Made by a program: the position numbers and the translations under genes
Shown: one piece after another, positions 6,298 through 64,000 of the stretch
Numbering within the stretch: position 1 is the stretch's first letter
Layout of the letters: the number at the start of each line of letters is the position of its first letter
The notes under the pieces: generated by a model
The model's database searches: none
The model's input: the letters and a program-made list of their open reading frames with translations, nothing else
Told to the model about the DNA's origin: nothing
Source: Bolinopsis microptera
Lineage: Eukaryota > Ctenophora > Tentaculata > Lobata > Bolinopsidae
NCBI RefSeq assembly: GCF_026151205.1
Contig: NC_087079.1
Span: 8,918,635-8,982,634 of the forward strand
Direction of reading: 5' to 3'
DNA: 64,000 nucleotides

Positions 6298-6652
6298 GGC
6301 CTTAGTGGCTCAGTTGGTTAATCCGGGCCTGGTATTGCTTGAGGTACCAGGTTCGATTCCCGACTCTGTCACTAGCCGTGGGGTGAGCGTCGTCGACGCT
6401 CAGCTAAGGATCCTGAGTGGTCTATGCAGCCCCCCGGTCCACTCAGCCAAATACTCGAGAAATCGGGTGTGAGGGTTAAATGAGGAGCTGCCCATTGCAG
6501 CAAAGTCTCGGGCGAAGAAAGTACGGTACACACTACCTTAACCGTCACTGGCCTAACGTATAATTGAATCCTTCGGCTTCCTGCAATTGGCTGGTTACAC
6601 ACTTGTGTAACAATGTGGCTGTTGGAATGTCCGAAGTAAAATAAGTGTTGAG
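6298..6652 (+). repeat. tRNA-derived SINE, copy 1
   Basis: The head carries an A-box-like TAGTGGCTCAGTTGG and a B-box-like GGTTCGATTCC, the internal promoter of RNA polymerase III. The following 280 bp match the copy at 58256-58600 closely, including GAGTGGTCTATGCAGCCCCC, GGGTTAAATGAGGAGCTGC and the tail around GAAGTAAAATAAGTGT. The two copies differ most in the tRNA part, so this one has lost the recognisable anticodon arm. It lies in a short stretch rich in CCCGGC repeats. Confidence 0.8.
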
Positions 6653-35809: not shown

Positions 35810-36066
35810 TGCAATTTACCTACAAAAATGTAACCATTTTTTATTGAAATCTTTTAAATCAATCAATCACATACAAATTACACAATGGAATAAACTACAA
35901 AAATACCTTGAGAGAAAGTGTGCATTTGCAAGCTAGTTTATAATATGGTAACTATCCTATCATAAGTTGTTCACGAACAGCTGTTCGCGAACTACTGTTC
36001 ACGAACAGGGGTCGGGCTATCTGGGTACTGTACAAAACACAAAACACAAATATCGAGTGCAGAGTG

Positions 36067-36830
36067 TCAGGGTCAGGGTAAGGGTCAGGGTCAGGGTCAG
36101 GGTCAGAGTCAGGGTCAGGGTCAGGGTCAGGGTCAGGGTCAGGGTCAGGGTCAGGGTCAGGGTCAGGGTCAGGGTCAGGGTCAGGGTCAGGGTCAGGGTC
36201 AGGGTCAGGGTCAGGGTCAGGGTCAGGGTCAGGGTCAGGGTCAGGGTCAGGGTCAGGGTCAGGGTCAGGGTCAGGGTCAGGGTCAGGGTCAGGGTCAGGG
36301 TCAGGGTCAGGGTCAGGGTCAGGGTCAGGGTCAGGGTCAGGGTCAGGGTCAGGGTCAGGGTCAGGGTCAGGGTCAGGGTCAGGGTCAGGGTCAGGGTCAG
36401 GGTCAGGGTCAGGGTCAGGGTCAGGGTCAGGGTCAGGGTCAGGGTCAGGGTCAGGGTCAGGGTCAGGGTCAGGGTCAGGGTCAGGGTCAGGGTCAGGGTC
36501 AGGGTCAGGGTCAGGGTCAGGGTCAGGGTCAGGGTCAGGGTCAGGGTCAGGGTCAGGGTCAGGGTCAGGGTCAGGGTCAGGGTCAGGGTCAGGGTCAGGG
36601 TCAGGGTCAGGGTCAGGGTCAGGGTCAGGGTCAGGGTCAGGGTCAGGGTCAGGGTCAGGGTCAGGGTCAGGGTCAGGGTCAGGGTCAGGGTCAGGGTCAG
36701 GGTCAGGGTCAGGGTCAGGGTCAGGGTCAGGGTCAGGGTCAGGGTCAGGGTCAGGGTCAGGGTCAGGGTCAGGGTCAGGGTCAGGGTCAGGGTCAGGGTC
36801 AGGGTCAGGGTCAGGGTCAAGGTCAGGGTC
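36067..36830. repeat. (TCAGGG)n satellite, about 127 units
   Basis: A 764-bp array of the hexamer TCAGGG, essentially pure from about 36110 to 36810; only the edges show variants (TAAGGG, TCAGAG, TCAAGG). TCAGGG differs by one base from the common animal telomere repeat TTAGGG. Both strands are open through the array because of the 6-bp period, giving meaningless Arg-Val and Leu-Thr frames. Just left, GTTCACGAACAG occurs twice as partial inverted/direct copies (35969-36008). Confidence 0.98.
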
Positions 36831-37108
36831 TAATTATAGTTAAGACTAGTAGTACAATTTGTGTAAAGGAATTACTCATGGTCAGTCTATAAAACACATG
36901 AAAAGCAGTGTGCACCATATACCTTAGTCTCTAGCTTTGTTATCAAAACACGTGATTCGATCACGTGATATTATCTCATTGTAAACAGGGTTTATTTGTT
37001 TAATTACGTGTAGTATGGTAATTGTAAAGTATTAAGACAAGTTAACTAATAATATTATGTATATGATCTGAGTACAGAAGTCTGGCGTGGTCTGGGAAGC
37101 TGGGAGGA

Positions 37109-48928: not shown

Positions 48929-51900
48929 CTGCAATTTCTAAAGAATAATGTTTGTTTATTTGTTTTGGGACCAGTTTTTGGTACACCGGCCAATGTTTAC
49001 AAAATCATATGATACATAACAATATAATTTTGTGAATATGAGATTTGAAAATTATGATGTAACCTTTTATGTTTATTCATTTTTTAAAAACCAATTAATT
49101 CCCGATTAAAATCTTCGGGTATGATGACTACTACTACTACTACTATGTCGGAGCTAAGTCCGATCTACGCCAGAAAACCCCCTCCATATATCCCTGTCCC
49201 GCATCAGGGTTCGCAGTTCCTCTTTAGAGTTTGTCCCAACTTCCTTCAGTAACATAGACAAGTAGCTTTGTCTTGGTCGGCCTTGCTGTGCTCTACCGTG
49301 CGTAGGTTCCCATAAGACTAAATCACTGGCAAGTAGCTCAGGATGTCGGATGCAGTGTCCCGCCATTTTTAATCTCCTGCTTCGTAACTTGTTTGACAGC
49401 CTTGGGAGGCTACCATACAGAGTTATATTGCTGACCTTGTCCTTCCATGAGATACCCAGCACCATACGCAACATCTTTGTGTATGTCCCGTCCAAACTTT
49501 TCTCTTGAGCCTTTGTCAGTGTCCAGGTTTCTGATCCGTAGAGCAGTACTGATTCACAAGCCGCTATGAACAATCTAATCTTTAGGCTCTTTGAGAGTTT
49601 GGATTTCCAGATATCCTTCAGTCTATGTAGGGCACCCCACGCTTTTCCCTTTCTAACCCTTATCTCCCTATCTGTGCTCTCAATCCAGGAGCCTAAGTAG
49701 ATGAAATCATCTACATTTTCTATGGCTTCCCCGGATCGACTTTGTAGGTCGCTAGATCGATCCTCCATATTCAGTGTCATGACCTTGGTCTTGCCTTCGT
49801 TTATGTGTAGTCCCACGCTTGCTGCCGCCGATTCTACTCTGAGCAGGAACTCGTTAGACTTGTCCATGTCCTCAGATATAAGTGCTATATCATCTGCAAA
49901 GTCCACATCGGTGATGATCTTGGGCCCCACTCTTCTGCTTTTTCTACGTTCGAGGGTGAGTCCAAGTCGCTCCGCATCATCGCCTATGGCTTGCCTCATA
50001 CAGTAGTCGATGACTATTGCAAAGAGGTAAGGTGCTAAGGTATCACCCTGTAACACACCTGCAAGTATCTCGAACAATTCAGTTTCTCCGTCTGGAGTTA
50101 GGACTTTGGCCATTGTCTTCTCGTACATGAGCCGTATAAGCTGCACGATTTTGACTGGAATGCCGTAAGCTTCTAGAATCTTTAGCATTAGGTAGCATTA
50201 GGTATGATGAGGTACACGACAAAAGGGACAAATCATGGGGCGTGGGCCTTCATCAGAATCTAGATATAACATTCTTAGATTTGGACATTGTAAGATGGGT
50301 TTCCGATTCCAGCTAAAATATTTCATTAATTGAAGTAAGATTTAACCAATTTCTGGCTATTGCATGTTTTGAACATCTTTATATTTATGGTTATGTTTAT
50401 CAGTACACCTACGATTTTAGCGGCAGCATTTGTCCGTAAGCGCATTAAAAATCAGTGATAGGTATTACAGCTAACAGATAACATATTCATGATATTGAGT
50501 TATAGTTAGCAAACTAGTTCAAATCCCTTTCTTAGAAAATCCTTAATCGCACCACGTTATTATCAAGTAATTGCGTCACGAGGAGGGATCACAAGACTAA
50601 GTCTGTTATAAATATATCCGGCAGAAAATGGAAAAGAGAATATCCGGTAGAAAGAATAATTAAAATAAAATATAGTTGTTCGTACTTGTCCTGGAAGAAG
50701 TTCCTGTTGATCTTGTATCGCTTGAAAGGGAGCTTTCAGTGTTCCAGTTTCTGCAGGGGCATTTCTTGATTAGCGTTTAAATTTCCCTTTGATATTTTTT
50801 TGACAAGGAATTAGGAGGACAACTGTTTTTAGAAGTAGAGATGATGTAAATGCCATTATTCTTGATTTGATTCGATTTAATTTGACAATTTCTCTGATAC
50901 CCACGCTCCACATTATTTCTGCCAAAATCAAAATGGTCTCACTTTTCAATCAGTTTCCACATGTCAAAACTATCAAATTTTGACCGGTGTTATGTAGGTC
51001 AATTTCAAAGCCAATTTTAAGAAACCTCTCTCAACGATAGTAGAACAAACAATTGTTTAATGAAATAGAAGACAAGGATTCTAACCTGATAGCCCGATAT
51101 CAATGGTATTTCCCACTTGTGGCATACCAGCGCCCCAACTTTCAAGTACCTCCGGAAGCTTGCCTGAGAGCTCATTTTCCTGAGAATCAGAGAGGGGATC
51201 TTGAGGAACAGGTACTTGGCAGGTCAGGTCCGGAAGAGGTGTTATGTTACCTTCACCACCCTCTCTGTGGGACATTGTTCTTTATCAAAGAGTTTTAAAA
51301 GAGTTTTAAAAGATTTACAAAGAGTTTACAAAGAGTTTACAAAGAGTTTACAAAGATTTTACAAAGAGTTTAAAGAGAGTTTATAAGGAGTTTGCAGATT
51401 ACACAAATTGCAGCAATGGTCATGTCATCATAGAATCTATAAGTATCAAATCGTGTTGAATATACCACTAAAGCACCTCACAAATATCAACGCAGTTATT
51501 GATAAGAGCGATTTAAAGTTTAAACCATTTCACAGATTTTTTGTCTGATTAATTATCTAGCGACTGTAACTCAAACATATGCAATAAAAATGGTTAGTTA
51601 CCTTTTCAGAATACTGTCAGCGTTCATAGGAGAAGTAATGTGGATTGGGACCTCCACCGTTTTGATCAGAGATCCATCTACCTCAACACTTTCTTCTGAT
51701 ATACTGCCTTTAGAAACTTCTAGCAGCTTAATGGAATTTTTGGTATTTGTGGTTCGTGATTTGTTGCCGTTGGCTTTGGGAATGCGAAATAGGGGTGTTG
51801 AAGGTGGTTTAGCGTAAGTCCTACTGTCAACATTACTGTTTGAAAATGTGGGAGAAGAAGATTTGGGAGCAAATGGTGCTGGCTCGCGTTTAGGTAATTC

Positions 51901-54900
51901 AATAGTCCCCATGCTATGCTGGGTTGATGGTGACGACACTTTACTGTTAGGAACAGCAACAACTTCGTGAGTTACTGGAGGGGCAGGTAGAGGGATTGGA
52001 ACGACTTCCCGTGGTGGTGTGAAGACACGTGGGGGTGTGAAGACACGTGGGGGTGTGAAGACACGTGGAACTGGAGCGGGGGGAGGTTGGTAATGAGAGG
52101 CAGGTGGTCCTGGAGAGGAACCTCTGTTGTCAGACGTTTGGTATTCGGTCATAAACACCTTCTTGTCTTGATTCAGGAAACTGAAAGGCAACAGCATCAC
52201 AAATTTTGCCATATTTTACCCATGAGTAATTGGTCTATCAGTTCTGCAAGCAATACGTAAGAATTATAAATAGTAAAACGTCTGGTAGGGCCGGAGTTCC
52301 ACGGTAAACGGTTCCTATCACAGATAGATCCAAACTTCGTTAGCTTTTACCCCTCTTTTTAATCTAACCATTGCCAGGACAGACATTAAGTCATCTTTAA
52401 GTGGAAATAGTTAATCGGCCACATTGCCAATATGTACATTATAAGCAACAGTTTCTGATATTAGTTACCAGATTTTAACGGTACGTCATTTATTTCTCAG
52501 GTTTCATTATATTTAGATGTATAACGATTATATTTTCAAACCATGTAAAAAGTGTATTCAAGATCTCGCGCTACATACCTTCTTGGCGAAGCCTGTGCAG
52601 GAGGAGGTGGTTCTTCTCTCCGGATAGTCGGGGGACTGTATCCTATCAGAGCATTGTGTTTTAAGATGGGCGGCAGATCATCTGCAGGTCTGAAGGGGTC
52701 CTGCAGTCTACCAGGGGCTACTGATGTGCTATCTTGGTTAAGAGACAAATATCAATTCGTGTTGAGTTTGGGGTGATACTAAGCGCATTTCAGTTCACAA
52801 TGAACATTGCGGCTTGCGCAGGTTCAACGTGTGTAACCGTGATGATTAAACAATATTGTTTCAATAACAAAGAAAACATTTTTCTGTTTTAGGACACGAT
52901 ACACCTAACGAACAGAGCTAGTTATTAAAATAATAGAATTATATACCTTTATTATATTTTTATAGCTCATGTGAACTGTTCAACTTCATGTCAGCCACAA
53001 ACCTGGTCTATAATTAGAAGGAACAATCTCGTCGGGTAGTTTCTTAACATCTTCAGCTTCTTGAGATTCTGCTGTGCTCTTTTTCTTCTTTTTCTTCTTG
53101 GTAACCTTCGAATCTGGGACAAGAAAATTGTTTAATTTCAAAATGGTGGGACGTCACCCGCCCAGGCATTCCCCCAGCAAATCCACACATGCATGCTAAT
53201 GTCATCAATAATTTGGGTTTGTAAACATTATCGTCATGTCAATAACCGCGATTGGATGAACTTTTAAAATTAATTTCCTGACGAACATATTCTTTGATTT
53301 GATTTTGTGAACACTGTAATTACTCATGAGATCGTGCACGTACATCTCAGCTGCGCACGTGCACATCTTAGCTCCGCCAGTGGCCGGCTCTACTGTTAAT
53401 TCTTAATTATTCGTCAGTTGTAATCAAACCAAAAAAGGTGCACTTAAACATGCACTGGTCCATCAATTTAACGTGAACCCACTATATCCCAAAACGATAT
53501 AGTTACAATAAAACATCACGATTCAGCCTGGCACGAGATACCGAGCTTTTTTAATCATTAATCACCCCACGAAATACCAAGTGTTTTTGTTCATTACTTT
53601 CATCCCTATCTTAGACGGGTTTTCTGGGGCTTTGCTGTATTAATTCGTACGAGACTTCATTTTACCGACTTATTATACAACCTTCGAGCAGATTTAAGTG
53701 CAAATATTGGTCATCCGATGTTGAATTTGGCGAGAAGGTTAAATCCCGGGTTTACGAGAATCTGACAGTTCGTCGGAAATTATACGCTGAGGAGAGGCCT
53801 GACAAGCTGTTCATATTGACATTAGTTTAATTTGAATCGAATTTTTCTTGAAGCAGCAGGAGTAGCACATTGCAATTTTAACACCACTGTCATTATTAAG
53901 TCTACCAGTGGTATCTAATAGAATATTTTATCGTTCATGTCGAATAAAGTCGATAAAATCACGCCAACGCGTTAACGCTTGACTGCCAGTGCCTTTAACC
54001 TCCAAATTCGGGAAACGGTTTAAGTCGATTTTTCCATCAACTGTTCACTTTGATTTTTAACAATTTATACAGTTGATCATCAAAGCTGTTAGATTTGTTT
54101 TCTGAGGCTGTATTACATTAATTCTTTCATCTATGGAAATAAGAGGTCTGACTTTCATCTTTTAGTGGTGTATGATATTCACCGTTTTCAAAAGATTTCG
54201 CAGGGCAGTATCCAAATACTTTCTGCTGGAAATTGGAATCGGTTCAAAAGAAAAAACCGGTAACAAAACGAAATTCCCTAAATTTATCAAGAACTTCCCG
54301 TTCGAAATATTTTCCCGTTTTCTTTTTGCTTTCTGTGATTCATAGCTAAACAATAAACATATGTTTCTATCCTATATAACACAATGTTTAATCAAACAAA
54401 ACCCATTATGCTTAAAACCTTAAATATTTTCTTAAAATGTTTACTTGAATTTCCAGTGGACTTCTTGGGCTTCTTCACGGCTCCCCTTAAGTTGTTAGCA
54501 CCAAAGTTAACCACACTGGGTCGGGCCGTTACTCGTCGGTTCTTGTTGTTGATACCCGGCTTTCCTCTTTTAGCTGGGTGAGCCGACCTGAACGACCATA
54601 AGTTAGATCAGATTATACCATAACGTTAGACCATAAGTTAGAGTGTTAGACCAAGAATCGAGCTCGATTTGAAAATTGCGTGCAAGCTATACACAAATAA
54701 AAGCCAATATTGAGCTTTATTCGTATGTGCTTTATTCGTATGAGCTTTATCCGTATGTGAGATTCGGAGTATAAAACATTTCCCCATATCGAAAAATTAT
54801 CTGTAATTGAGTTTCTAAATCTTTCGAGTCTAGTGACAAGACTTGTTTCCCTTGAAGATCCTTCAACTAAGAAGGTAAACAAAACATGACCATGAAAAGT

Positions 54901-57900
54901 AAACGGAAAGATAGGAATCTGTACCTGATAGTGATCGATGAGTAGCTTCATTAGTCAAGTTTATACTGGATAACCAGGTTTATTCAATAATAACCCATTA
55001 GGGAACAATTTAGAACCGAGCAGTAAATTACAATCAAATCAGCATTCCACGACCTAGGATCACCCCATCGTCCGATTCAGCAAATAGCTACTAGTCAGTA
55101 CTATCGCTATATCTATATGGGGTATGTTTATCGTAGGGAATCCAATCATTATGTCTATGCCAGAAGATTTGTTCCGTGGGTCAGTTAGAGTGTTAGACCA
55201 AGAATCGAGCTCGATTTGAAAATTGCGTGCAAGCTATACACAAATAAAGCCAATATTGAGTTTTATTCGTATGTGCTTTATTCGTATGAGCTTTATCCGT
55301 ATGTGAGATTCGGAGTATAAAAAATTTCCCCATATCGAAAAATTATCTGTAATTGAGTTTCTAAATCTTTCGAGTCTAGTGACAAGACTTGTTTCCCTTG
55401 AAGATCCTTCAACTGAGAAGGAAAACAAAACATGACTATGAAAAGTAAACGGAAAGATAGGAATCTGTACCTGATAGTGATCGATGACAGGCACGTAGCC
55501 AGGGGGGGGGGGGGGGGCTAGGGGGGCGGCAGCCCCCCCCCCCCCGGAAAAATCGAACCCCAGAAAAAAGATAAGCCCCCTAGTCCCCATGGTCGCCTGG
55601 TAACTGGGCTGTGTTTATGACTGCAGTCAGTCAAACAAAACATGACTATGAAAAGTAAACGGAAAGATAGGAATCTGTACCTGATAGTGATCGATGACAG
55701 GCACGTAGCCAGGGGGGGGGGGGCTAGGGGGGCGGCAGCCCCCCCGGAAAAAATCGAACCCCAGAAAAAAGATAAGCCCCCTAGTCCCCATGGTCGCCTG
55801 GTAACTGGGCTGTGTTTATGACTGCAGTCAGTCAAAGATTTGAACTGTGGATTAGTAAATATATGTCATTAAATCCAAGCAAACATTCTAGAAGACTTCT
55901 ATAATTATAGTCAATAGTGTCCCCTAGACCGTAGGAAATGTAAAAATCTTAAGACGATGAGGCCTGAGTAAGTCGTAAATTCTGATTGGAGAATGCAGAT
56001 TGCTGTTGTGAAGTTACCAAATTTACGTGAGTACTTGATTCTTTTCAATCCCAGTTTATTGCTGTCCTACAAATTTCTTTAATGCCAAATGTCGTCTAAA
56101 ACACCCTGTTTCGCAAAAAATTTCCGGGGGGCTGCGCCCCCCTAGCCCCGCCAAGGGGCTCCGCCCCTGGACCCCGCTGGGGGCTGCGCCCCTAGACCCC
56201 TGCCACAGCTTGCTCGCTTCGCAGCTTGATTGGACGCGTCGGCTCGCTTCGCTCGCCGACAGCCCCCCTCAAAGAAGAATCCTGGCTACGTCCCTGATCG
56301 ATGAGTTGCTTCATTAGTCAAGTTTATACTGGGTAACCAGGTTTATTCAATAATAGCCCATTAGGGAACAATTTAGAACCGAGCAGTAAATTACAATCAA
56401 ATCAGCATTCCACGACCTGGGATCACCCCATCGTCCGATTCAGCAAATAGCTACTAGTCAGTACTATCACTATATCTATATGGGTTATGTTTATCGTAGA
56501 GAATCCAATCATTATGTCTATGCCAGGAGGTTTGTTCCGTGGGTCATTAGCAGTCAGCATCTGCAGCACACAAGCCTATTACTTAGAGGAGGAAATTATA
56601 GCAGCTTTAGGAGATAATTAGGTTCGGAGTAATTCCTTCATCGTGTTTTCTATAAAGGCTGGCCTAAACCCTCCAGATCTTCACTTCAAGATGTTGGTCC
56701 AAGTATTCGCAGCAACCCTCCTCTCCCTGGCGCTCTCATGCCAGAACATTCGACTCATGGCAGATGATGGAAGTGTCGTGGTCGGACGGAGTTTGGAGTT
56801 TAGTGAGGTTCCAGTTCCAGCGAGCAACTCTATCGTGACAGAGCCAGCAGGACAAGAACACGTGATGCCCCTCACTGAAAACTGTGACGATCCTTTTGTC
56901 TTTGAGAGCGACTTTGACGTATTGAGGTTCAAGGTATGGTTCAATAATGAATGGGCCAACAGCACTCTAGGAGGAATCAACAGTGAAGGTATGGTTGCCA
57001 GTACCCTCTACTTCACCGACTACGCCCAATTCAAAGACCCTGCTTCCTTCAAGGGAAAGAAATGTGACAAGATCATCCCACAGACCAAATTAGCAACATA
57101 CGTCCTGGCTAAGTACAGTACGGTAAAACAGCTGAGGAAGGATTTGAAGAACAAAGTCTTCCCAAAGGTCTGGACCCAAGGAGATCTTGGACTGGAGTCT
57201 GTTCCATTCCACTACGTCTTCCACGACGTCACTGGACAGTCTTTGGTGCTTGAATACACCAAGAACGGAATGAAGTACTTCGAGAACACTATCGGAGCTA
57301 TGACCAACTCTCCAGACTACGAATGGCACATGACGAACCTGATGAACTACCCTACCATGCAGCGAACAGAGTTCGAGGGCTTCAAATATCATCACAAAGG
57401 ACAAAAACAATTGATGAACCCCAAATGGGTTGGAACAGGTTTCTCTGGACTCCCAGGAGATTACAGCTCACCCAGTCGCTTCGTCAAGGCAGCGACCATG
57501 GCCACTCACAGCGGCAAGACAAAGAATGCAGAACAAGCCGTGACTCGAATGGTTCACATGATGAACGCTGCTGATATCCCCAAAGGAATCATGTCTGCCC
57601 ACTACGTTGATGAAAATGGTGACAAACATGAACACACCGACTACACATGGTGGATCTCAGTGTACGACCTGAGTGCCAAGTGTGTGTACTACCGAGGTTA
57701 CACCGACCTCTCCGTTAAGAGGATCTGTCTGGATAATATCCCTGACTTCCCTGCTGAGATTGATGTTGAGAGAACATTTGAAGAGGGTGTTGTGGATATG
57801 ACGAGTGAGCTGAAGATGAAGGCTGTGAGACAGTAAACTGATCCAGCTTGAAACAATTGTTATTAGCGTTTGAGTATTGAACACGTCTGGAAATGGACAT

Positions 57901-60900
57901 TGAACAGTATCTGTGATTTTAACTGTTTTTTATAAGCTATCTATTCTTCTCGAGAGTTAGAAAGTTTGTTTATCTTGTAATTCACTAAGAAATTTGAAAT
58001 GTATCTTTTGTGATTTTTGTTTTTGTAGGGTTACATTGTATGTTTATATTGCATTAAGTTTGTATTGCCTTATAGTTATATTGCGTTAAATTGGATAATG
58101 TTTTGATATAACTTGTCGTTAATTCTTCACACACACCCAATTTTTCTGAATCAAAAAGTAATAATCACAAAAAACTAAAATTAAATCTTTTAAGTTAAGA
58201 TTTCCTTGTAAGAATTGGGAACTTAATTTTTCGTCATATATTAACGGCCAGGTAGCGCAGTTGGTTAGAACGCCAGCCTTACAATCGTAAGGTTGCGAGT
58301 TAAAATCCCACTGTCTGCCTGGTCGTGGGGCGAGCGTCGTTGACGTTCAGCTAAGGATCATGAGTGGTCTATGCAGCCCCCCGTTCTACTCAGCCGAATA
58401 TTCGAGAAATCGGGTGTGAGGGTTAAATGAGGAGCTGCACATTGCAGCAAAGTCTCGGGCGAAGAAAGTATGGTACACACTACCTTAACCGTCACTGGCC
58501 AGATAAATCCTTTGGCTTCCTGTAATTGGCTGGTTGCACTTGTGTAACAATGTGGCTGTTGGAATACACCGAAGTAAAATAAGTGTCTTGATAAAAAAAA
58601 TTGTGATCTGAAAACGTATACCATCAATTAGAATGGGTACAGTACGACCTCTGGGGCGGGCTCAGGGAAAATTTCCGAACCTCTAATTCATTCGATAAGG
58701 GAGGGTAATCTATTTGAAAGGTCCAGTAACTTGCTTATTTGTTTATGTCATTATCTTACTCTTGGTCCCCAGTTGAAGATGGTGTCATGCTACTGTGCTG
58801 AACTTCCTAAACCATCTCGTTTACCACGTGATCAGTATCACGTGTAATTTATATTACCTAGTTCTTAGAGAGACCGGGAATGTGCTGATTGGCACCCTGT
58901 CAGTTGCCAGACACACCCCCAGTTAGTTCCTTCATTATTCATTGACAGAATGAAGGGACAGTTAAGCAGTGTCGCAGACTCTATAACGCCATTTACGTCT
59001 CGGAAGGCAGGATTAAACCTGTCCATCATTCCACGAAACCAATATACTGACACTAAAGTAATTTCTACATAACAGCTGTTATAAGAGCACGCCCACAGCT
59101 ACAGGTAAATGATTCCTAAATAGCTACTAGAGTAGCCAATTTAGAAGTCTTGCCATCCAATAATCGTCATTTCTCAAATAAATCATGAAATTTACGTACT
59201 GTCTTTCAGTTTCTTTGTCGGTGATGTAAACGGAAAGTTGTTCCTTTACCTCTGGCAGATTCAGGATAGCCGTCGCTCTGTAACGTTGTTACTGTCATTT
59301 TTATTGTGACAAGGATCTTAGGCAGTGCAGAACTCAATCTCTATAAAGTATGAATAAAATTCAAAATTGGCGATCGGAACTTGGAATCTGCTGTTCAATC
59401 TAATTTATCATTATCATTCCGGGAGAAGAATAGGGAGAGGGAGAATTAAAAGGATTTTGTAGATAATGCAATGAAATATATACTATTAATCTTAGTATGA
59501 GTCTTACCATTATACTGTTCTAGAATAATCTTTTAATAAGAAAGGCCGACCCAAGTCATGATTGCACTCGAGCGTTCATCTCGCTTAATCTTATTTGAAG
59601 AGTACCATATCGGCTCTCAATTTTTGGAAATAAACTTTACCGTCCTTTTGTCTTCTGCCCAAACTGTTTGCCCTCAAGATGAAAACCGACTATCTTCCCT
59701 TGATGATCAGAATTACCCACCAAATAAAAATAATTTAGAATATTTACTTACGTGGGCCGGGACTCTGCGGATTTCTGCAAACTCTTCTCGATCAGCATCT
59801 TCACCAAGTTTGAGTACATCACTGGAATATCGTCGTAACTTCCTTTCACTATCTTGTAACACAGGCTCACCTGGAATAAAGTCTCACAGATGTTTCGCAA
59901 AGTTTCAAGATTATTTTTTTCAAAGTCTCAAGACTTTCTTTCGAAGTCCCGAGATTGTTTGGTGATTCTAATGAAAACACAATCAACAGTTCTTTCTTAT
60001 GAGAGCAAGACTGCTTATGAATAATTTTTCAACCGTTCTTCAATTTGTAGATTAAGATTCTAAATCTAAGTAAAATTATCAGACATATTGCCCGAGATTT
60101 GATTAAATTGAAATATGATTGGTTGCATAATAATATGGTGTATATATTTAGTTTACAATCTAGCAGATTCAACATATCATGGCAAGATCAGGTCACTGGT
60201 GGTGTTTTCGTGATCAATCTGTCAACATCGTAAAATCAAAGTGCCACGTGATGAATATGAGATTGACAATCGATAAGGATTATATTTACTGGGCACGTAC
60301 ACAGGGCCAGGTGAGAGCCTCATAGTCATATTCGTTATTTCAATCTGAGATAATTCTGTGAGATCAATTCTGCGTGACTATAGTGAGTGTTTGACCATTG
60401 ATCGCGCGCATAGCGGCCGGCCGCAAAAGGCCGGCCATCTCTCGCGCGAGAGATGGCCGGCCTTTTGCGGCCGGCCGGCAAATGGGGGTGAATTTTTACA
60501 AATGAATAACTTGTAAAATGTCAAGCTGGATCGCAATTCGTCGACAGATTGAAATTGACTCACTTAATTCATGTTAGTCGCCAACGTGCACAAATACACA
60601 ATGAGTAGGACTAGGAGTAGGAGACTTATGTTGCATTGTAAGGTTTTAGTTATAAAGTAATAATATTGAATACTTTACTTCAATTACCTTATCGAATGTT
60701 ATTTGAACGGACATGCAGATCTCTATTGTTTTATGAACTACAGCTACTGACAAAACCATTGGAATATTTGTTCATATTTTTGGGCGTCCTTTTCCAATTT
60801 TAGCAGATAATTTTTTCAATCGATTTTTAATACAGTAGGAAGAATCTTGGTATAACTTAGTCCGATAATAAAAATGAAAATCTTGAATTGTCGTGTTAAA

Positions 60901-63470
60901 TATAACAATCGTGTAATATAAGGCAACACTATATAATACTACGCTGTTGAACTTGAATAATCAAACCTGAATTAAATACTTAAAGACTGAAAATTTGGCG
61001 ATGTTTTTTGTCCCAAAATCTGCCGCTCATAATGAAGTTGTGGGCGGGTGCGGAATCGCACTATTTACAAAATATAATCGCACCTAGCACAATTTACATG
61101 TTCCGTCTGGTGATGTATTACTATTATCTGAAGTTACGGTTCACGTTAGAGAAAAACTTACCAAATTAGATGCATTGAAAGCTGGTTTCAATGCGCAAAG
61201 CTCGTACAGCAAACATCCCAACGCCTGAAAATATGATCATTTACCAACTGATATTTATATTTCATGAATTAATCTCTCTAAAACGTTGAAATAATGTAAC
61301 TGTAAGTTACCAATAAACATATAATGAACGATGGGTAATATTTCATAACTTAATTGCATATTAGTTATATATTAGTTTGATAATATTGCCGTGAATTTGT
61401 GAACTAACCATATCTCTTAAAGTAAGAGATATCAGGCGGCTTATGTGTCTTTATTTTGATTGTCCTCGACGTTTTGCAGATATATTATCCAACCATAATC
61501 TTGACAATGGTGCATTCTCGAAAGTTTTCGCCGCATGTCGAAGTGGAATTTATTGAATGATACCATAAATCGAGACTATTGGAAACTTCTCTACGGTGTA
61601 ATGTTAGGTGCATCGCCCAACGCCAGTAGTCACTATGCCACCACCATGATATAATACCGCTACTATAATACTGCCACAGGCCACAACAAAACACACCACG
61701 GACTACGACAATTCCGACAATGTCCGATGTCGTCCATTTTAACTTGTTAAGGGGGCAGGGGGGGGGTCTTTATGAAATTTCTCTCGAAATTGATTTTATA
61801 GTTGTTTCTGATAGAGGGGAGTGATATCTACCAGATATTTTTGGTCCCATGGAAAAAATTTGTTCCTAGCCGAAATTATTGCCGGTCAAAGGTCAGCGCT
61901 CATGTGTAATTGTATTGCGCGAGCGATTTTCAATCGCGCGCCCTGAAAATCGAGTCTAAAAATCTATCTTCTCCTACATTTTTTGAGCAATCACCTTGAA
62001 ACTTTCAGGATAAGTTCTAAGGACCATTTAGAAACTTTTGCTCGTTTTAGAATTTCGAGATAGGCCTTTAAAAATTTTTTATTCGATTTTGAAAATCTTG
62101 GACCTGAAAAAATCGTCAAAAAACGAGGTCCAAGAGTTTCAAAATCGAATAAAAAATTTTTAAAGGCCTATCTCGAAATTCTAAAACGAGCAAAAGTTTC
62201 TAAATGGTCCTTAGAACTTATCCTGAAAGTTTCAAGGTGATTGCTCAAAAAATGTAGGAGAAGATAGATTTTTAGACTCGATTTTCAGGGCGCGCGATTG
62301 AAAATCGCTCGCGCAATACAATTACACATGAGCGCTGACCTTTGACCGGCAATAATTTCGGCTAGGAACAAAATTTTTCCATGGGACCAAAAGTAGCAGG
62401 TAGATATCACTCCCTCTATTAGAAACAACTATAAAATCAATTTCGAGAGAAATTTCATAAAGACCCCCCCCCCTGCCCCCTTAATTGCGGAAAGTCAGCC
62501 AAATCCAACCAAAACTTGCTAATGCAAAACCAAAATACCACTCATACCATTTTATACGTAAATATCAAGCCGTTATTTTGAGGCAACATCCCATGATCCC
62601 AGCTGAAGACGATTTACACATGTATTTTGAAAGCTCCTGCTAAAACAAACTTTTCGTATCACTGCACTTATATGTTTTAAATAATCCTCCTCCAGGCATG
62701 ATCCCATATTCAATATTTACGGCCGAATCAGCGAACACGTGATGAGTATACTCAATTTATTTATTCCCCCAACACCTTGGCACGACGTTCTCCATAATAT
62801 TACCAATGGCGAGCAAATCAAAATGCAGCTGGTGAACATTTAAAGTATAACCAATGAGATTATTATATTCTCCGTCAATATAACATTCTTTGAACGAAAT
62901 TAATCAATTACTCCAGTCGGATCTCAAAAAACGCATTATGAAACTCATACCCAGACGACCGATTTGGCCTGACTTCTTTTTAATATACGACGCGACGTCG
63001 TTGCAAAATAACGCGTATTTTACATGTAAATTATAGCGCGCGGTATTACAGTGCCTACTCACCCAAACGTCAGATTTAGAGTTGTAGGGTTTATCCTGGC
63101 AAATTTCAGGGCTGAGGTAGCAGGGTGTTCCTACACAAGTACTTGCCATGTCCACCGTGTGCTCTAATACTCGGGCTATCCCGAAATCTCCTGCAAAGAT
63201 AATTTGTGAAGAAAGTTTCACGTTTATTTCATAGCTCACTCTCAGCTGCAGTGGTCAGAGCCGGCACAGCTTTTTTTCGTGCTATTGATATTAAGAAGCA
63301 CCGATTAAAATTGTCAATCTGAGTTGCAAAATCATACATTTCATTTGATTAAATAAACCTATTTTGATCATGTTAGCTTTAGTTAAAAACACATTTTGAG
63401 TCTTTAGATCTCTGTGCAGTACCCTTTTACCGTGGATATACCGCAACGCCATCGTTATCTGAACGTACCA
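44018..63470 (-). CDS. NEK1/NEK5-like serine/threonine kinase (N-lobe outside window)
   Basis: Eighteen minus-strand exons join with matching phases: 63470-63359, 63190-63063, 61224-61162, 59870-59752, 54587-54445, 53113-53003, 52732-52579, 52180-51602, 51264-51086, 50750-50686, 48928-48817, 48207-48109, 47981-47941, 47390-47292, 46607-46514, 46339-46250, 44888-44813 and 44096-44018, 780 residues before the stop. The first four exons encode the kinase C-lobe; the rest is a long tail with Lys-rich, Pro-rich and very acidic parts. NEK kinases act in cilia, the cell cycle and the DNA damage response. The ATP-binding N-lobe and start codon must lie to the right of the window. Introns host several mobile elements and a nested hydrolase gene. 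Confidence 0.88.
44704..44800. repeat. Tandem repeat of about 33 bp, three copies (ACTAAAGTGAAATGAAAATG)
   Basis: Three diverged copies directly beside the penultimate NEK exon, in its downstream intron. Confidence 0.7.
45888..45915. repeat. Inverted repeat GCACGTACTAT
   Basis: Arms GCACGTACTAT and ATAGTACGTGC around a four-base loop, in a NEK intron. Confidence 0.7.
45958..46015. repeat. 17-bp tandem repeat, three copies
   Basis: Unit AAAAGGTTCGTACTGTT repeated three times with two substitutions in the last copy. Confidence 0.85.
49128..50200 (-). mobile_element. 5'-truncated LINE with reverse transcriptase and target-site duplication
   Basis: A 344-codon minus-strand frame (50188-49154) covers the reverse transcriptase palm and thumb: [18 protein letters not shown], the catalytic [11 protein letters not shown] (YADD-type box as FADD), [12 protein letters not shown], then LLYGSETW and [11 protein letters not shown] of the C-terminal region. 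The 3' end carries a (TAG)n tail (minus strand, 49128-49147). The insertion is bracketed by the 10-bp direct repeat GGTATGATGA (49118-49127 and 50201-50210). The endonuclease and 5' part are missing, so it is a dead but recent, 5'-truncated insertion in a NEK intron. Confidence 0.85.
51086..54587 (-). CDS. NEK-like gene, basic and proline-rich tail exons
   Basis: Exon 54587-54445 directly follows the kinase domain and is basic ([19 protein letters not shown]). Exon 53113-53003 begins with a Lys run. Exon 52732-52579 and the large exon 52180-51602 are Pro-rich, the latter with three tandem RVFTPP units. Exon 51264-51086 has the acceptor GTCCCACAG and ends G/GTTAGA. These regions probably serve docking and localisation (inference). 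Confidence 0.75.
51284..51392. repeat. 12-bp minisatellite (TTTACAAAGAGT)
   Basis: About eight diverged copies directly upstream (in gene sense) of the NEK exon at 51264-51086, overlapping the intron that ends there. Confidence 0.85.
54639..56550. repeat. 546-bp tandem duplication, second copy interrupted by a transposon
   Basis: The segment 54639-55184 (from TTAGAGTGTTAGACCAAG to TTCCGTGGGTCA) is repeated from 55185 to 56550 with few differences. The second copy is split by the hAT-like element at 55488-56296, whose exact empty site is preserved in the first copy at about 54931-54940. Confidence 0.85.
55488..56296. mobile_element. hAT-like MITE (CAGGCACGTAGCCAGG termini) with 8-bp duplication
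   Basis: Left end CAGGCACGTAGCCAGG and right end CCTGGCTACGTCCCTG are inverted repeats, flanked by ATCGATGA on both sides (55480-55487 and 56297-56304). Inside, a unit of about 196 bp including the left end and its flank is duplicated (55441-55640 against 55641-55836). The body is full of G/C homopolymers and GCAGCCCCC / GGGGGCTGC blocks. No transposase frame. Confidence 0.8.
56691..57836 (+). CDS. Secreted choloylglycine hydrolase / penicillin V acylase-type Ntn hydrolase
   Basis: An intronless 381-residue frame. Residues 1-16 ([16 protein letters not shown]) are a signal peptide, and cleavage after ALS would expose Cys17 as the N-terminal nucleophile. Family residues are in place relative to that Cys1: Arg17 and Glu20 in GRSLEF, the oxyanion Asn in [14 protein letters not shown], and a catalytic-type Arg in [24 protein letters not shown] block also matches. 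The family hydrolyses linear amide C-N bonds: bile salt conjugates, penicillin V, acyl-homoserine lactones or other N-acyl amides; the substrate here is unknown. The gene lies in a NEK intron on the opposite strand. An upstream in-frame ATG at 56643 would mask the signal peptide and is less likely. Confidence 0.9.
   Translation: MLVQVFAATLLSLALSCQNIRLMADDGSVVVGRSLEFSEVPVPASNSIVTEPAGQEHVMPLTENCDDPFVFESDFDVLRFKVWFNNEWANSTLGGINSEGMVASTLYFTDYAQFKDPASFKGKKCDKIIPQTKLATYVLAKYSTVKQLRKDLKNKVFPKVWTQGDLGLESVPFHYVFHDVTGQSLVLEYTKNGMKYFENTIGAMTNSPDYEWHMTNLMNYPTMQRTEFEGFKYHHKGQKQLMNPKWVGTGFSGLPGDYSSPSRFVKAATMATHSGKTKNAEQAVTRMVHMMNAADIPKGIMSAHYVDENGDKHEHTDYTWWISVYDLSAKCVYYRGYTDLSVKRICLDNIPDFPAEIDVERTFEEGVVDMTSELKMKAVRQ
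58256..58600 (+). repeat. tRNA-derived SINE, copy 2
   Basis: The head GGCCAGGTAGCGCAGTTGG has a good A box and the B box GCGAGTTAAAATCCC, with an anticodon-like arm CCTTACAATCGTAAGG between. It matches copy 1 (6298-6652) over the whole body and tail, so the two are members of one SINE family with a conserved central domain. It lies in a NEK intron, just downstream of the hydrolase gene. Confidence 0.85.
59752..63470 (-). CDS. NEK-like gene, kinase C-lobe exons
   Basis: Exon 63470-63359 holds [16 protein letters not shown] and the catalytic loop HRDLKTQN. Exon 63190-63063 holds the DFG motif and activation loop ([11 protein letters not shown], then [20 protein letters not shown]). Exon 61224-61162 encodes [16 protein letters not shown] (helix F). 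Exon 59870-59752 closes the C-lobe with [11 protein letters not shown] and ESRP. The SPEIC and the [15 protein letters not shown] context are closest to NEK1/NEK5-type kinases. Confidence 0.92.
60414..60477. repeat. Perfect 64-bp GC-rich palindrome
   Basis: Perfectly self-complementary without a spacer, centred on CTCGC/GCGAG at 60445/60446, with GGCCGGCC and CAAAAGG blocks in each arm. It stands out as an island of high GC in AT-rich intron. Confidence 0.95.
61751..62480. mobile_element. 730-bp near-perfect palindromic MITE with TTAA ends
   Basis: The element starts GGGGGCAGGG and ends CCCTGCCCCC, flanked by TTAA (61747-61750 and 62481-62484). The two arms of about 350 bp are almost identical in inverted orientation; they meet near 62115 around TTGGACCTGAAAAAATCG. 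No coding capacity. The TTAA duplication points to piggyBac-type mobilisation. It sits in a NEK intron. Confidence 0.9.
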
Positions 63471-64000
63471 CTGAAAATGAAGAAGAGATTTAATTTCCGC
63501 AGTCTTTTGATTAAAAGGTTACTAGTTTTGATATGTCTATAAGATATTGCCGAGAGATGTAATTGTAATCGTCCGCACGACTGGTTATGCGACTGACCAC
63601 TTAAAGTTAACTATTTGAGGCAGATTGTCCGTCAAGCTGCTTGAGTATATTTTTAAAATTTGCATTTTAAATATTATAACCGTCGCATACCTATGTTTCT
63701 TACTTAAATCAGGAGTTGAGCTTGATCGTACGAGGTGATTTAAATTTCCTATTTTAAAGCCTTAAATTTGACAGATTATCGCGGTTCTTATTATCACGGG
63801 AGCGATTTTCAATTAGTGGGAGCTGCTTTACCTGATCAAGAGCTATATTTAAGTATTTAACTTAAAGGCACTAGCTGTCTGGTCGGTATCTAAATACTGC
63901 AGTTAAGTAGTAAGAAGTGAAAGCTACATCGCGTGATTGAACTCAAAGTTCATCAGTTAAGATTTTGACGACCTTATGTCAGGTTTAATTTCGCGGATAG
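63471..64000. other. Right edge, intron of the NEK-like gene
   Basis: The kinase N-lobe exons are expected to the right. No exon with the Gly-loop or VAIK-type motif was recognised in this stretch. Confidence 0.5.

What the first reader, a model, noticed from the sequence alone, without database searches (positions are those of the whole stretch)
56643..57836. Intact bacterial-style Ntn hydrolase nested in an animal kinase intron: candidate horizontal gene transfer
The gene has no introns while its neighbours have many, runs opposite to the host gene, and carries the full residue set of the choloylglycine hydrolase/penicillin acylase family. Animal relatives such as NAAA and acid ceramidase differ in these blocks. 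Family knowledge suggests roles in cleaving bacterial N-acyl amides, including quorum signals.
Basis: partly seen in the sequence, partly recalled or inferred. Interest (0 to 1): 0.75.

Follow-up and report, generated by a model that had tools for sequence, protein, structure and literature searches.

The report
Bacterial-type amidase family in comb jelly
The intron-free gene is real, and it belongs to a small, long-established family of bacterial-type amide-cutting enzymes, probably secreted, in what is almost certainly a comb jelly genome, rather than being a lone or recent bacterial insertion.

Summary
The ORF is real (window 56691-57836 +, 381 aa from the likely ATG) and is a choloylglycine hydrolase/penicillin V acylase-family enzyme (Pfam CBAH 147.5 bits). 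It lies opposite a kinase gene, between spliced minus-strand exons. It is not a lone insert. The genome has 12 CBAH places: 8 full-length intronless genes including this one, 1 full-length gene with a 134-bp GT-AG intron, 2 broken copies, and 1 place that looks like an assembly artefact. Chromosome lengths fit the published ctenophore Bolinopsis microptera.

The nine intact proteins form one clade (100/100) on a long stem. Full-length bacterial matches are 24-34% identical, and no donor is resolved. Eight of eight own proteins aligned have Gln instead of Thr after the catalytic Cys and four extra cysteines, nearly absent from 49 bacterial proteins; some have KDEL-like ends. dN/dS is 0.17-0.37 where computable. 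So it is an old, selected, single-origin family. Transfer from bacteria is likely but unproven: no other eukaryote could be compared. Coral has a similar protein (PMC3204972). Likely function: secreted N-acyl amidase, substrate unknown.

The parts
56691..57836 (+). CBAH-family Cys-Ntn hydrolase gene, single open frame, 381 aa; stop codon included
56691..56738 (+). likely signal peptide ([16 protein letters not shown]); cleavage would expose the catalytic Cys as residue 1
   Evidence: 16-residue hydrophobic leader ending just before the invariant Cys; no signal-peptide program was run, cleavage is inferred
56739..56741 (+). codon of the catalytic Cys1 (C17 of the precursor)
   Evidence: invariant in 8 of 8 own-genome and 49 of 49 bacterial proteins aligned
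59200..59277 (-). exon at the end of the host kinase domain (..[25 protein letters not shown]..), acceptor AG and donor GTACGT
   Evidence: read from the sequence
59752..59870 (-). host kinase exon ([39 protein letters not shown]..), donor GTAAGT
   Evidence: read
63064..63470 (-). two host kinase exons (HRDLKTQN and DFGIAR..SPEI blocks); approximate ends
   Evidence: Pkinase E 8e-19
51601..52751 (-). downstream minus-strand exons (proline-rich, splice acceptor and donor signals), inferred tail of the kinase gene

Best explanation
The gene encodes a cysteine N-terminal-nucleophile amidase of the choloylglycine hydrolase/penicillin V acylase family, carrying a secretory leader. It is one of at least nine intact paralogues in a ctenophore that is almost certainly Bolinopsis microptera. 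Signal peptidase is expected to cut directly before Cys17, which frees the N-terminal cysteine nucleophile without autoproteolysis. The enzyme then hydrolyses an N-acyl amide bond, with Arg17, Glu20, Asn190 and Arg247 (mature numbering) around the site. The family descends from one bacterial-type gene that entered the lineage long ago. It has since gained four conserved cysteines (perhaps two disulfides), a Gln after the nucleophile, KDEL-like tails in some members, tandem and dispersed copies, and one intron. The window copy lacks the KDEL-like tail and would be exported. Shown here: domain, family, residues, copy number, single clade, dN/dS below 1. Inferred: secretion, activation by signal peptidase, disulfides, bacterial origin, substrate class.
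For: Pfam CBAH 147.5 bits. PVA structures match, with chain residues Tyr82, Asn175 and Arg228 aligned to Y107, N206 and R263 of the precursor. 12 CBAH places on C6, C8 and C9, 9 of 12 intact. All nine in one clade, 100/100. dN/dS 0.17-0.37 in the 24 of 36 pairs where it could be computed. Cys at 65, 125, 331 and 346 in 8 of 8 own proteins; among 49 bacterial ones 0, 0, 0 and 1. Residue 2 is Gln in 8 of 8 and Thr in 49 of 49; the ninth protein (L009) shows the same residues in its translation. KDEL-like ends HSEL (3), KTEL (1), QTEL (1) in 5 of 9. The genome's acid ceramidase is a separate, split gene. Genome identity: C1 is 26,206,493 bases and 13 large contigs hold 258.07 of 264.65 Mb, against 265 Mb, 13 chromosomes and largest chromosome 26.2 Mb for B. 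microptera in PMC11797021.
Against: No other eukaryotic CBAH sequence could be compared, so the direction and date of any transfer are untested. The stem is long, and its place among bacteria moves with the rows included. The bacterial scan used only two short peptide patterns, so closer relatives may be missed. Glu20 replaces the Asp20 known (recalled) from characterised enzymes. Scores lie far below the curated cut-offs for bile salt hydrolase (148.2 vs 350) and penicillin V amidase (134 vs 600). dS is 1.8-3.0, near saturation, for all 8 window-paralogue pairs, so selection on the window copy itself is shown less well than on the family. The one bacterial row with Cys at 346 (L096) also joins the own clade in the first tree, weakly (74) and with long branches.
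Confidence: 0.68

Rival explanations
1. Ancient eukaryotic or animal gene. A CBAH-only gene was already present in the animal ancestor (ultimately bacterial in the deep past), was kept in ctenophores and corals, and was lost elsewhere. The intronless copies reflect an intron-poor ancestor or retroposition.
For: Acropora millepora A5 is a 369-aa CBAH protein with a signal sequence and C-terminal KEEL whose best matches are bacterial (PMC3204972, passage); several ctenophore paralogues have the same layout with HSEL/KTEL/QTEL ends. The long stem and an intron in one member fit age.
Against: The same passage reports no significant match in Nematostella, Hydra, human, fly, worm or yeast, which demands many losses.
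Confidence: 0.3
2. Recent, independent bacterial insertion into the kinase intron.
For: Intronless, antisense in an intron, GC 48% against 37-41% in the 5-kb flanks, bacterial-type family.
Against: Paralogues on C6 and C9 in the same clade; 40-49% identity to seven of them but 24-34% to bacteria over the full length; added cysteines shared with the paralogues. The GC difference is also what coding sequence in an AT-rich genome would give.
Confidence: 0.03
3. Contamination or symbiont contig.
For: None beyond the bacterial type of the family.
Against: The gene lies within a contig of 18,467,570 bases between host exons; related genes lie on two more large contigs, one of them with an intron.
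Confidence: 0.01
4. Dispersed, mobile-element-assisted family: copies moved as cargo of, or by recombination between, repeats, and the window copy is one such passenger with no essential role.
For: The 3' edge of the homology shared by L006 (C6) and L008 (C9) is a repeat found at dozens of places, and that homology starts only 26-29 bases before the ATG.
Against: dN/dS well below 1 in the family; the window ORF is intact; no poly(A) tail or target duplication was seen at L008; the window copy was not shown to share that repeat.
Confidence: 0.15

Closest known systems
Penicillin V acylase of Lysinibacillus/Bacillus sphaericus (PDB 2z71, 3pva, 2iwm; organism name recalled)
   Same: Family, Asn175 and Arg228 equivalents, Tyr at the Tyr82 position; Cys nucleophile (chain residue recalled)
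   Different: Local match only (103.6 bits, residues 110-362 of the 397-aa ORF); Glu for Asp20 and Gln after Cys1 (the PVA residues are recalled); scores 134 against a cut-off of 600 for NF058572
Bacterial choloylglycine (bile salt) hydrolase
   Same: Same Pfam family; NF038245 matched at 148.2 bits
   Different: Far below the curated cut-off of 350; Tyr rather than Asn at position 82 in the window protein (the BSH residue is recalled)
Acropora millepora A5 CBAH protein (PMC3204972) and pA79-1 choloylglycine hydrolase induced by muramyl dipeptide (PMC3723955)
   Same: An animal-encoded CBAH protein of similar size with signal sequence and KEEL end, closest to bacterial enzymes; pA79-1 rises after a bacterial cell-wall fragment (passages)
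   Different: Coral, not ctenophore; whether A5 and pA79-1 are one gene was not checked; no sequence available for comparison
Acid ceramidase / NAAA of animals
   Same: Related Cys-Ntn amidases (recalled); an acid-ceramidase-like gene is also present in this genome
   Different: NAAA-beta segment there, none in the window protein; gene split over several reading frames and a different block around the Cys
Bacterial relatives in the genome scan (Sulfurovum, Sedimenticola, Methylocapsa and others)
   Same: Same residue set including Glu20; Cys1 in 49 of 49 aligned
   Different: 24-34% identity over the full length; Thr after Cys1 in 49 of 49; the four extra cysteines absent but for one Cys in one protein

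Membership tests
PF02275 CBAH (linear amide C-N hydrolases) | Score above the gathering cut-off | tested here: met
   147.5 bits vs 20.4
PF02275 CBAH (linear amide C-N hydrolases) | Cys nucleophile becoming N-terminal, with Arg17, Asn175 and Arg228 equivalents | tested here: met
   C17, R33, N206 and R263 invariant in 57 of 57 aligned proteins; exposure of Cys1 is inferred from the leader, not tested
PF02275 CBAH (linear amide C-N hydrolases) | Asp20 (recalled as a catalytic residue of characterised members) | tested here: not met
   Glu in 8 of 8 own and 48 of 49 bacterial relatives; a variant common to this branch, so it does not exclude membership in the wider family
PF02275 CBAH (linear amide C-N hydrolases) | alpha-beta-beta-alpha Ntn fold | not testable with these tools
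Bile salt hydrolase equivalog NF038245 | Score above 350 bits | tested here: not met
   148.2 bits
Penicillin V amidase equivalog NF058572 | Score above 600 bits | tested here: not met
   134 bits
Acid ceramidase / NAAA | N-terminal NAAA-beta domain (PF15508) | tested here: not met
   Only CBAH found in the window protein at E up to 1
Horizontally transferred animal gene | Nested with support inside a bacterial clade, with other eukaryotes excluded | tested here: inconclusive
   Own clade 100/100, but its attachment to bacteria is unstable; no eukaryotic comparison available
KDEL-type ER-retained protein | C-terminal KDEL-like tetrapeptide | tested here: not met
   Window protein ends AVRQ; five of nine intact family members end HSEL, KTEL or QTEL. 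Which tetrapeptides the receptor accepts is recalled, and these three are non-standard

The most novel reading that the evidence does not exclude
A bacterial-type amidase was captured once, before or near the origin of ctenophores, and rebuilt for the animal secretory pathway: signal-peptidase activation, two new disulfides, a changed residue beside the nucleophile, and ER-retained versus exported members. It forms a multi-gene system acting on microbial N-acyl amides. Coral CBAH genes would be its orthologues, making it one of the oldest bacterial enzymes recruited by animals for dealing with microbes.
Probability: 0.2. Interest if true: 0.68.

Novelty: new member of a known kind. Interest (0 to 1): 0.45.

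Why it matters
[quoted passage not shown] A selected, expanded family of bacterial-type N-acyl amidases there, with a coral counterpart that another study saw rise after a bacterial cell-wall fragment (PMC3723955, passages), gives a testable case of animals using a bacterial enzyme type on microbial or lipid signals. It also shows how such a gene can become a normal animal gene family.

Tried and rejected
Pseudogene/segmental-duplication idea: one search gave a 90% identical copy at C6:20.74 Mb, and made it look like a decayed copy inside an 18-kb duplicated block. I now reject this. With default blastn the block (window 50377 to 4 kb past the window end) differs by 860 gap openings and 672 mismatches over 18,586 columns; four pairs of real paralogous CBAH loci show 4-20 gap openings against 36-118 mismatches in their main diverged piece. 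With gap-friendly scoring the wider alignment gave 1012 gap openings, 865 of them single-base, against 555 mismatches, and the coding part 60 gaps against 34 mismatches. Against this, a MAFFT alignment of the coding part gave 104 mismatches and 57 gap columns, so the ratio depends on the aligner. Differences start near the edge of a retrotransposon copy that is itself 99.6% identical. This is the pattern of an uncorrected long read bridging a gap; PacBio CLR is among the libraries and wtdbg the assembler named in PMC10232365 (passages; which library type was used for Bolinopsis was not seen). Not counted as a gene copy, and no selection claim rests on it.

Viral origin: no relative in viral contigs (43 stretches matched a pattern, 0 confirmed). 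Plasmid relatives exist but all 155 records are under 60% identical (25 listed, 26.6-28.8%).

Retroposition: L006/L008 edges were examined; no poly(A), and the 3' edge is a dispersed repeat.

Phylum tests by family absence: let-7, RHD_DNA_bind, zf-C4 and Hormone_recep gave no match, but no control genome holds these families, so the absences prove nothing. Identity rests on chromosome lengths. COX1 was not found.

Literature (listings only unless passages are named): choloylglycine hydrolase + horizontal gene transfer + metazoan, 0 papers; choloylglycine + ctenophor, 0; bile acid hydrolase + Acropora + horizontal gene transfer, 0; bile acid hydrolase + Acropora, 1; with cnidarian 3, with coral 6, with horizontal gene transfer and eukaryot 23, 20 listed; one search listed 30 of 3,751, one search listed 13, one search listed 5. 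PMC4878875 lists a 'penicillin amidase' of Seriatopora as a bacterial transfer candidate in Anthozoa (passages); whether it is this family is unknown. PMC8125337 (passage) only mentions NAAA.

Full report
Observation. The reported ORF exists at 56643..57836 on the + strand. The likely start is the ATG at 56691, giving 381 residues with a 16-residue hydrophobic leader that ends exactly before the invariant cysteine. It matches Pfam CBAH at 147.5 bits and solved penicillin V acylases at E 1e-28. In the alignment the chain's residues Tyr82, Asn175 and Arg228 fall on Y107, N206 and R263 of the precursor.

Setting. On the minus strand a protein kinase gene (Pkinase E 8e-19) has domain exons at about 63.47-63.06, 59.87-59.75 and 59.28-59.20 kb, read by eye. 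The last of these finishes the kinase domain and ends in a splice donor, so the transcript should continue downstream. Minus-strand exons with splice signals lie at 52.7-51.6 kb. The CBAH gene lies between, on the other strand. That the flanking exons form one transcript is inferred.

Which genome. The window lies on an 18.47-Mb contig of a 264.65-Mb genome. I asked for lengths of 12 further contigs; with C6, C8 and C9 the lengths of C1-C15 are known. C1-C13 are 15.2-26.2 Mb (C1 26,206,493) and sum to 258.07 Mb, C14 and C15 are under 0.2 Mb, and the rest cannot hold another such contig. PMC11797021 (passages) gives Bolinopsis microptera 265 Mb, 13 chromosomes, largest 26.2 Mb. PMC10232365 (passages) says 13 scaffolds hold 97.23% of its assembly (97.5% here). 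The scaffold count differs (346 published, 232 here). I take the organism to be this ctenophore; that is an inference from lengths.

Family in the genome. CBAH was found at 12 places: 9 on C6, 1 on C8, 2 on C9. Eight are full-length intronless ORFs (L001-L008, L004 being the window gene). L009 (C9) is full length with one 134-bp GT-AG intron. L010 (one frame break, which could be a sequence error) and L011 are broken. The twelfth, C6:20.74 Mb, belongs to a block that looks like an uncorrected read and is not counted. Identity of the window protein to the seven other intronless paralogues is 40-49%. Pairwise dN/dS is 0.17-0.37 in the 24 of 36 pairs where dS could be computed; in the other 12 it could not. 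The 8 pairs with the window gene are near saturation (dS 1.8-3.0), so their values (0.17-0.31) are rough.

Relatives. A scan of one genome per bacterial and archaeal species, by two peptide patterns, gave 110 confirmed relatives; the best 80 were kept. Full-length matches have 24-34% identity; partial ones reach 37-39%. For the trees I dropped 5 of 80 loci with ORFs under 340 aa and used 77 bacterial rows (two loci give two rows) plus 9 own-genome proteins. The nine form one clade: SH-aLRT 99, 100/100. Attachment to bacteria is unstable. With L096 present they join it (74, long branches). Without L096, L074_b and L034 they join a set of 10 bacterial rows (96/97), next to the long-branch row L044. 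Without L044 and L072 as well they join 8 rows at 73/81. So: one origin in this genome, donor unresolved.

What changed since the split. Cys occurs at 65, 125, 331 and 346 in 8 of 8 own proteins; in 49 bacterial ones it occurs 0, 0, 0 and 1 times (L096). Residue 2 of the mature protein is Gln in 8 of 8 and Thr in 49 of 49 (49 of the 77 bacterial rows were used in that alignment, A2). L009 shows the same residues in its translation. Five of nine intact proteins end in HSEL, KTEL or QTEL; none of the 49 bacterial ones ends in a KDEL-like motif by the pattern used. The window protein has no such tail. Residue 20 is Glu in 8 of 8 and 48 of 49. The Tyr82-equivalent is Tyr in 5 of 8, Leu in 2 and His in 1 own protein, and Tyr in 46 of 49 bacterial ones. 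From recalled knowledge Tyr marks penicillin V acylase-type and Asn bile-salt-type enzymes.

Mechanism. Most likely the leader is removed by signal peptidase, Cys1 becomes the nucleophile and its own amino group the base (general Ntn chemistry, recalled), and an N-acyl amide is cleaved. The substrate is unknown. Bile salts are unlikely as natural substrates in a ctenophore (general knowledge); microbial or host N-acyl amides are plausible. In coral, a choloylglycine hydrolase (pA79-1) is among the genes up-regulated one hour after muramyl dipeptide (PMC3723955, passages), and a CBAH transcript with signal sequence and KEEL is expressed in larvae and post-settlement polyps (PMC3204972, passage).

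Compared with what is known. The genome's own acid-ceramidase-like gene is separate, on C7: a NAAA-beta segment (30.3 bits, cut-off 27) and a nearby segment matching acid ceramidase structures at E 2e-21. Bacterial-type CBAH in an animal is in print for coral. For ctenophores, the one search naming both choloylglycine and ctenophor returned 0 papers; (ctenophore, Mnemiopsis, hydrolase, horizontal gene transfer) listed 13, of which I looked at passages of one. The enzyme is a member of the CBAH family, but fails the curated cut-offs for both bile salt hydrolase and penicillin V amidase.

Verdict. Real, and more interesting as a family than as a single gene; a recent lone insert is excluded, and bacterial origin is likely but unproven. 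Structure could not be predicted.

Noticed in passing
G000:C6:20732477-20750704 (L098-L100, L102) against window 50377-64000 and L101: An 18-kb block about 90% identical to this window with more gap openings (860) than mismatches (672), unlike true paralogous DNA: looks like an uncorrected long read joined into C6, so genes there may be false duplicates.
   Followed up: yes
window 49157-50197 (-): Retrotransposon reverse-transcriptase-like ORF, 347 codons; its DNA is 99.6% identical to a copy on C6 at the edge of the block above.
   Followed up: no
C8 beyond the window: 67357-68545 and 70744-71932 in window-extended coordinates (L101): Inverted repeat, 1189 bases, 99.5% identical; the C6 block stops inside one arm.
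   Followed up: no
window 58325-58587 and 6377-6648: Dispersed repeat, 90% identical, downstream of the CBAH gene and next to a stretch that looks tRNA-like by eye (about 58244-58322); ARAGORN found no tRNA, so perhaps a tRNA-derived SINE.
   Followed up: partly
window 54636-56554: Locally duplicated blocks upstream of the gene (54636-54941 and 55183-55487 at 98%; 54932-55191 and 56295-56554 at 96%), the last ending about 140 bases before the start codon.
   Followed up: no
L008 (C9) and L006 (C6): CBAH copies on different contigs share DNA only from 26-29 bases before the ATG to the edge of a repeat present at dozens of sites, hinting at repeat-assisted movement.
   Followed up: partly
window 35952-36840: About 0.9 kb of simple repeat open in several frames, coding Val-Arg repeats on paper only.
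   Followed up: no
L074 (a MAG titled Deltaproteobacteria bacterium) and L030 (Sulfurovum): Two CBAH genes in tandem in 2 of the 80 bacterial loci.
   Followed up: no
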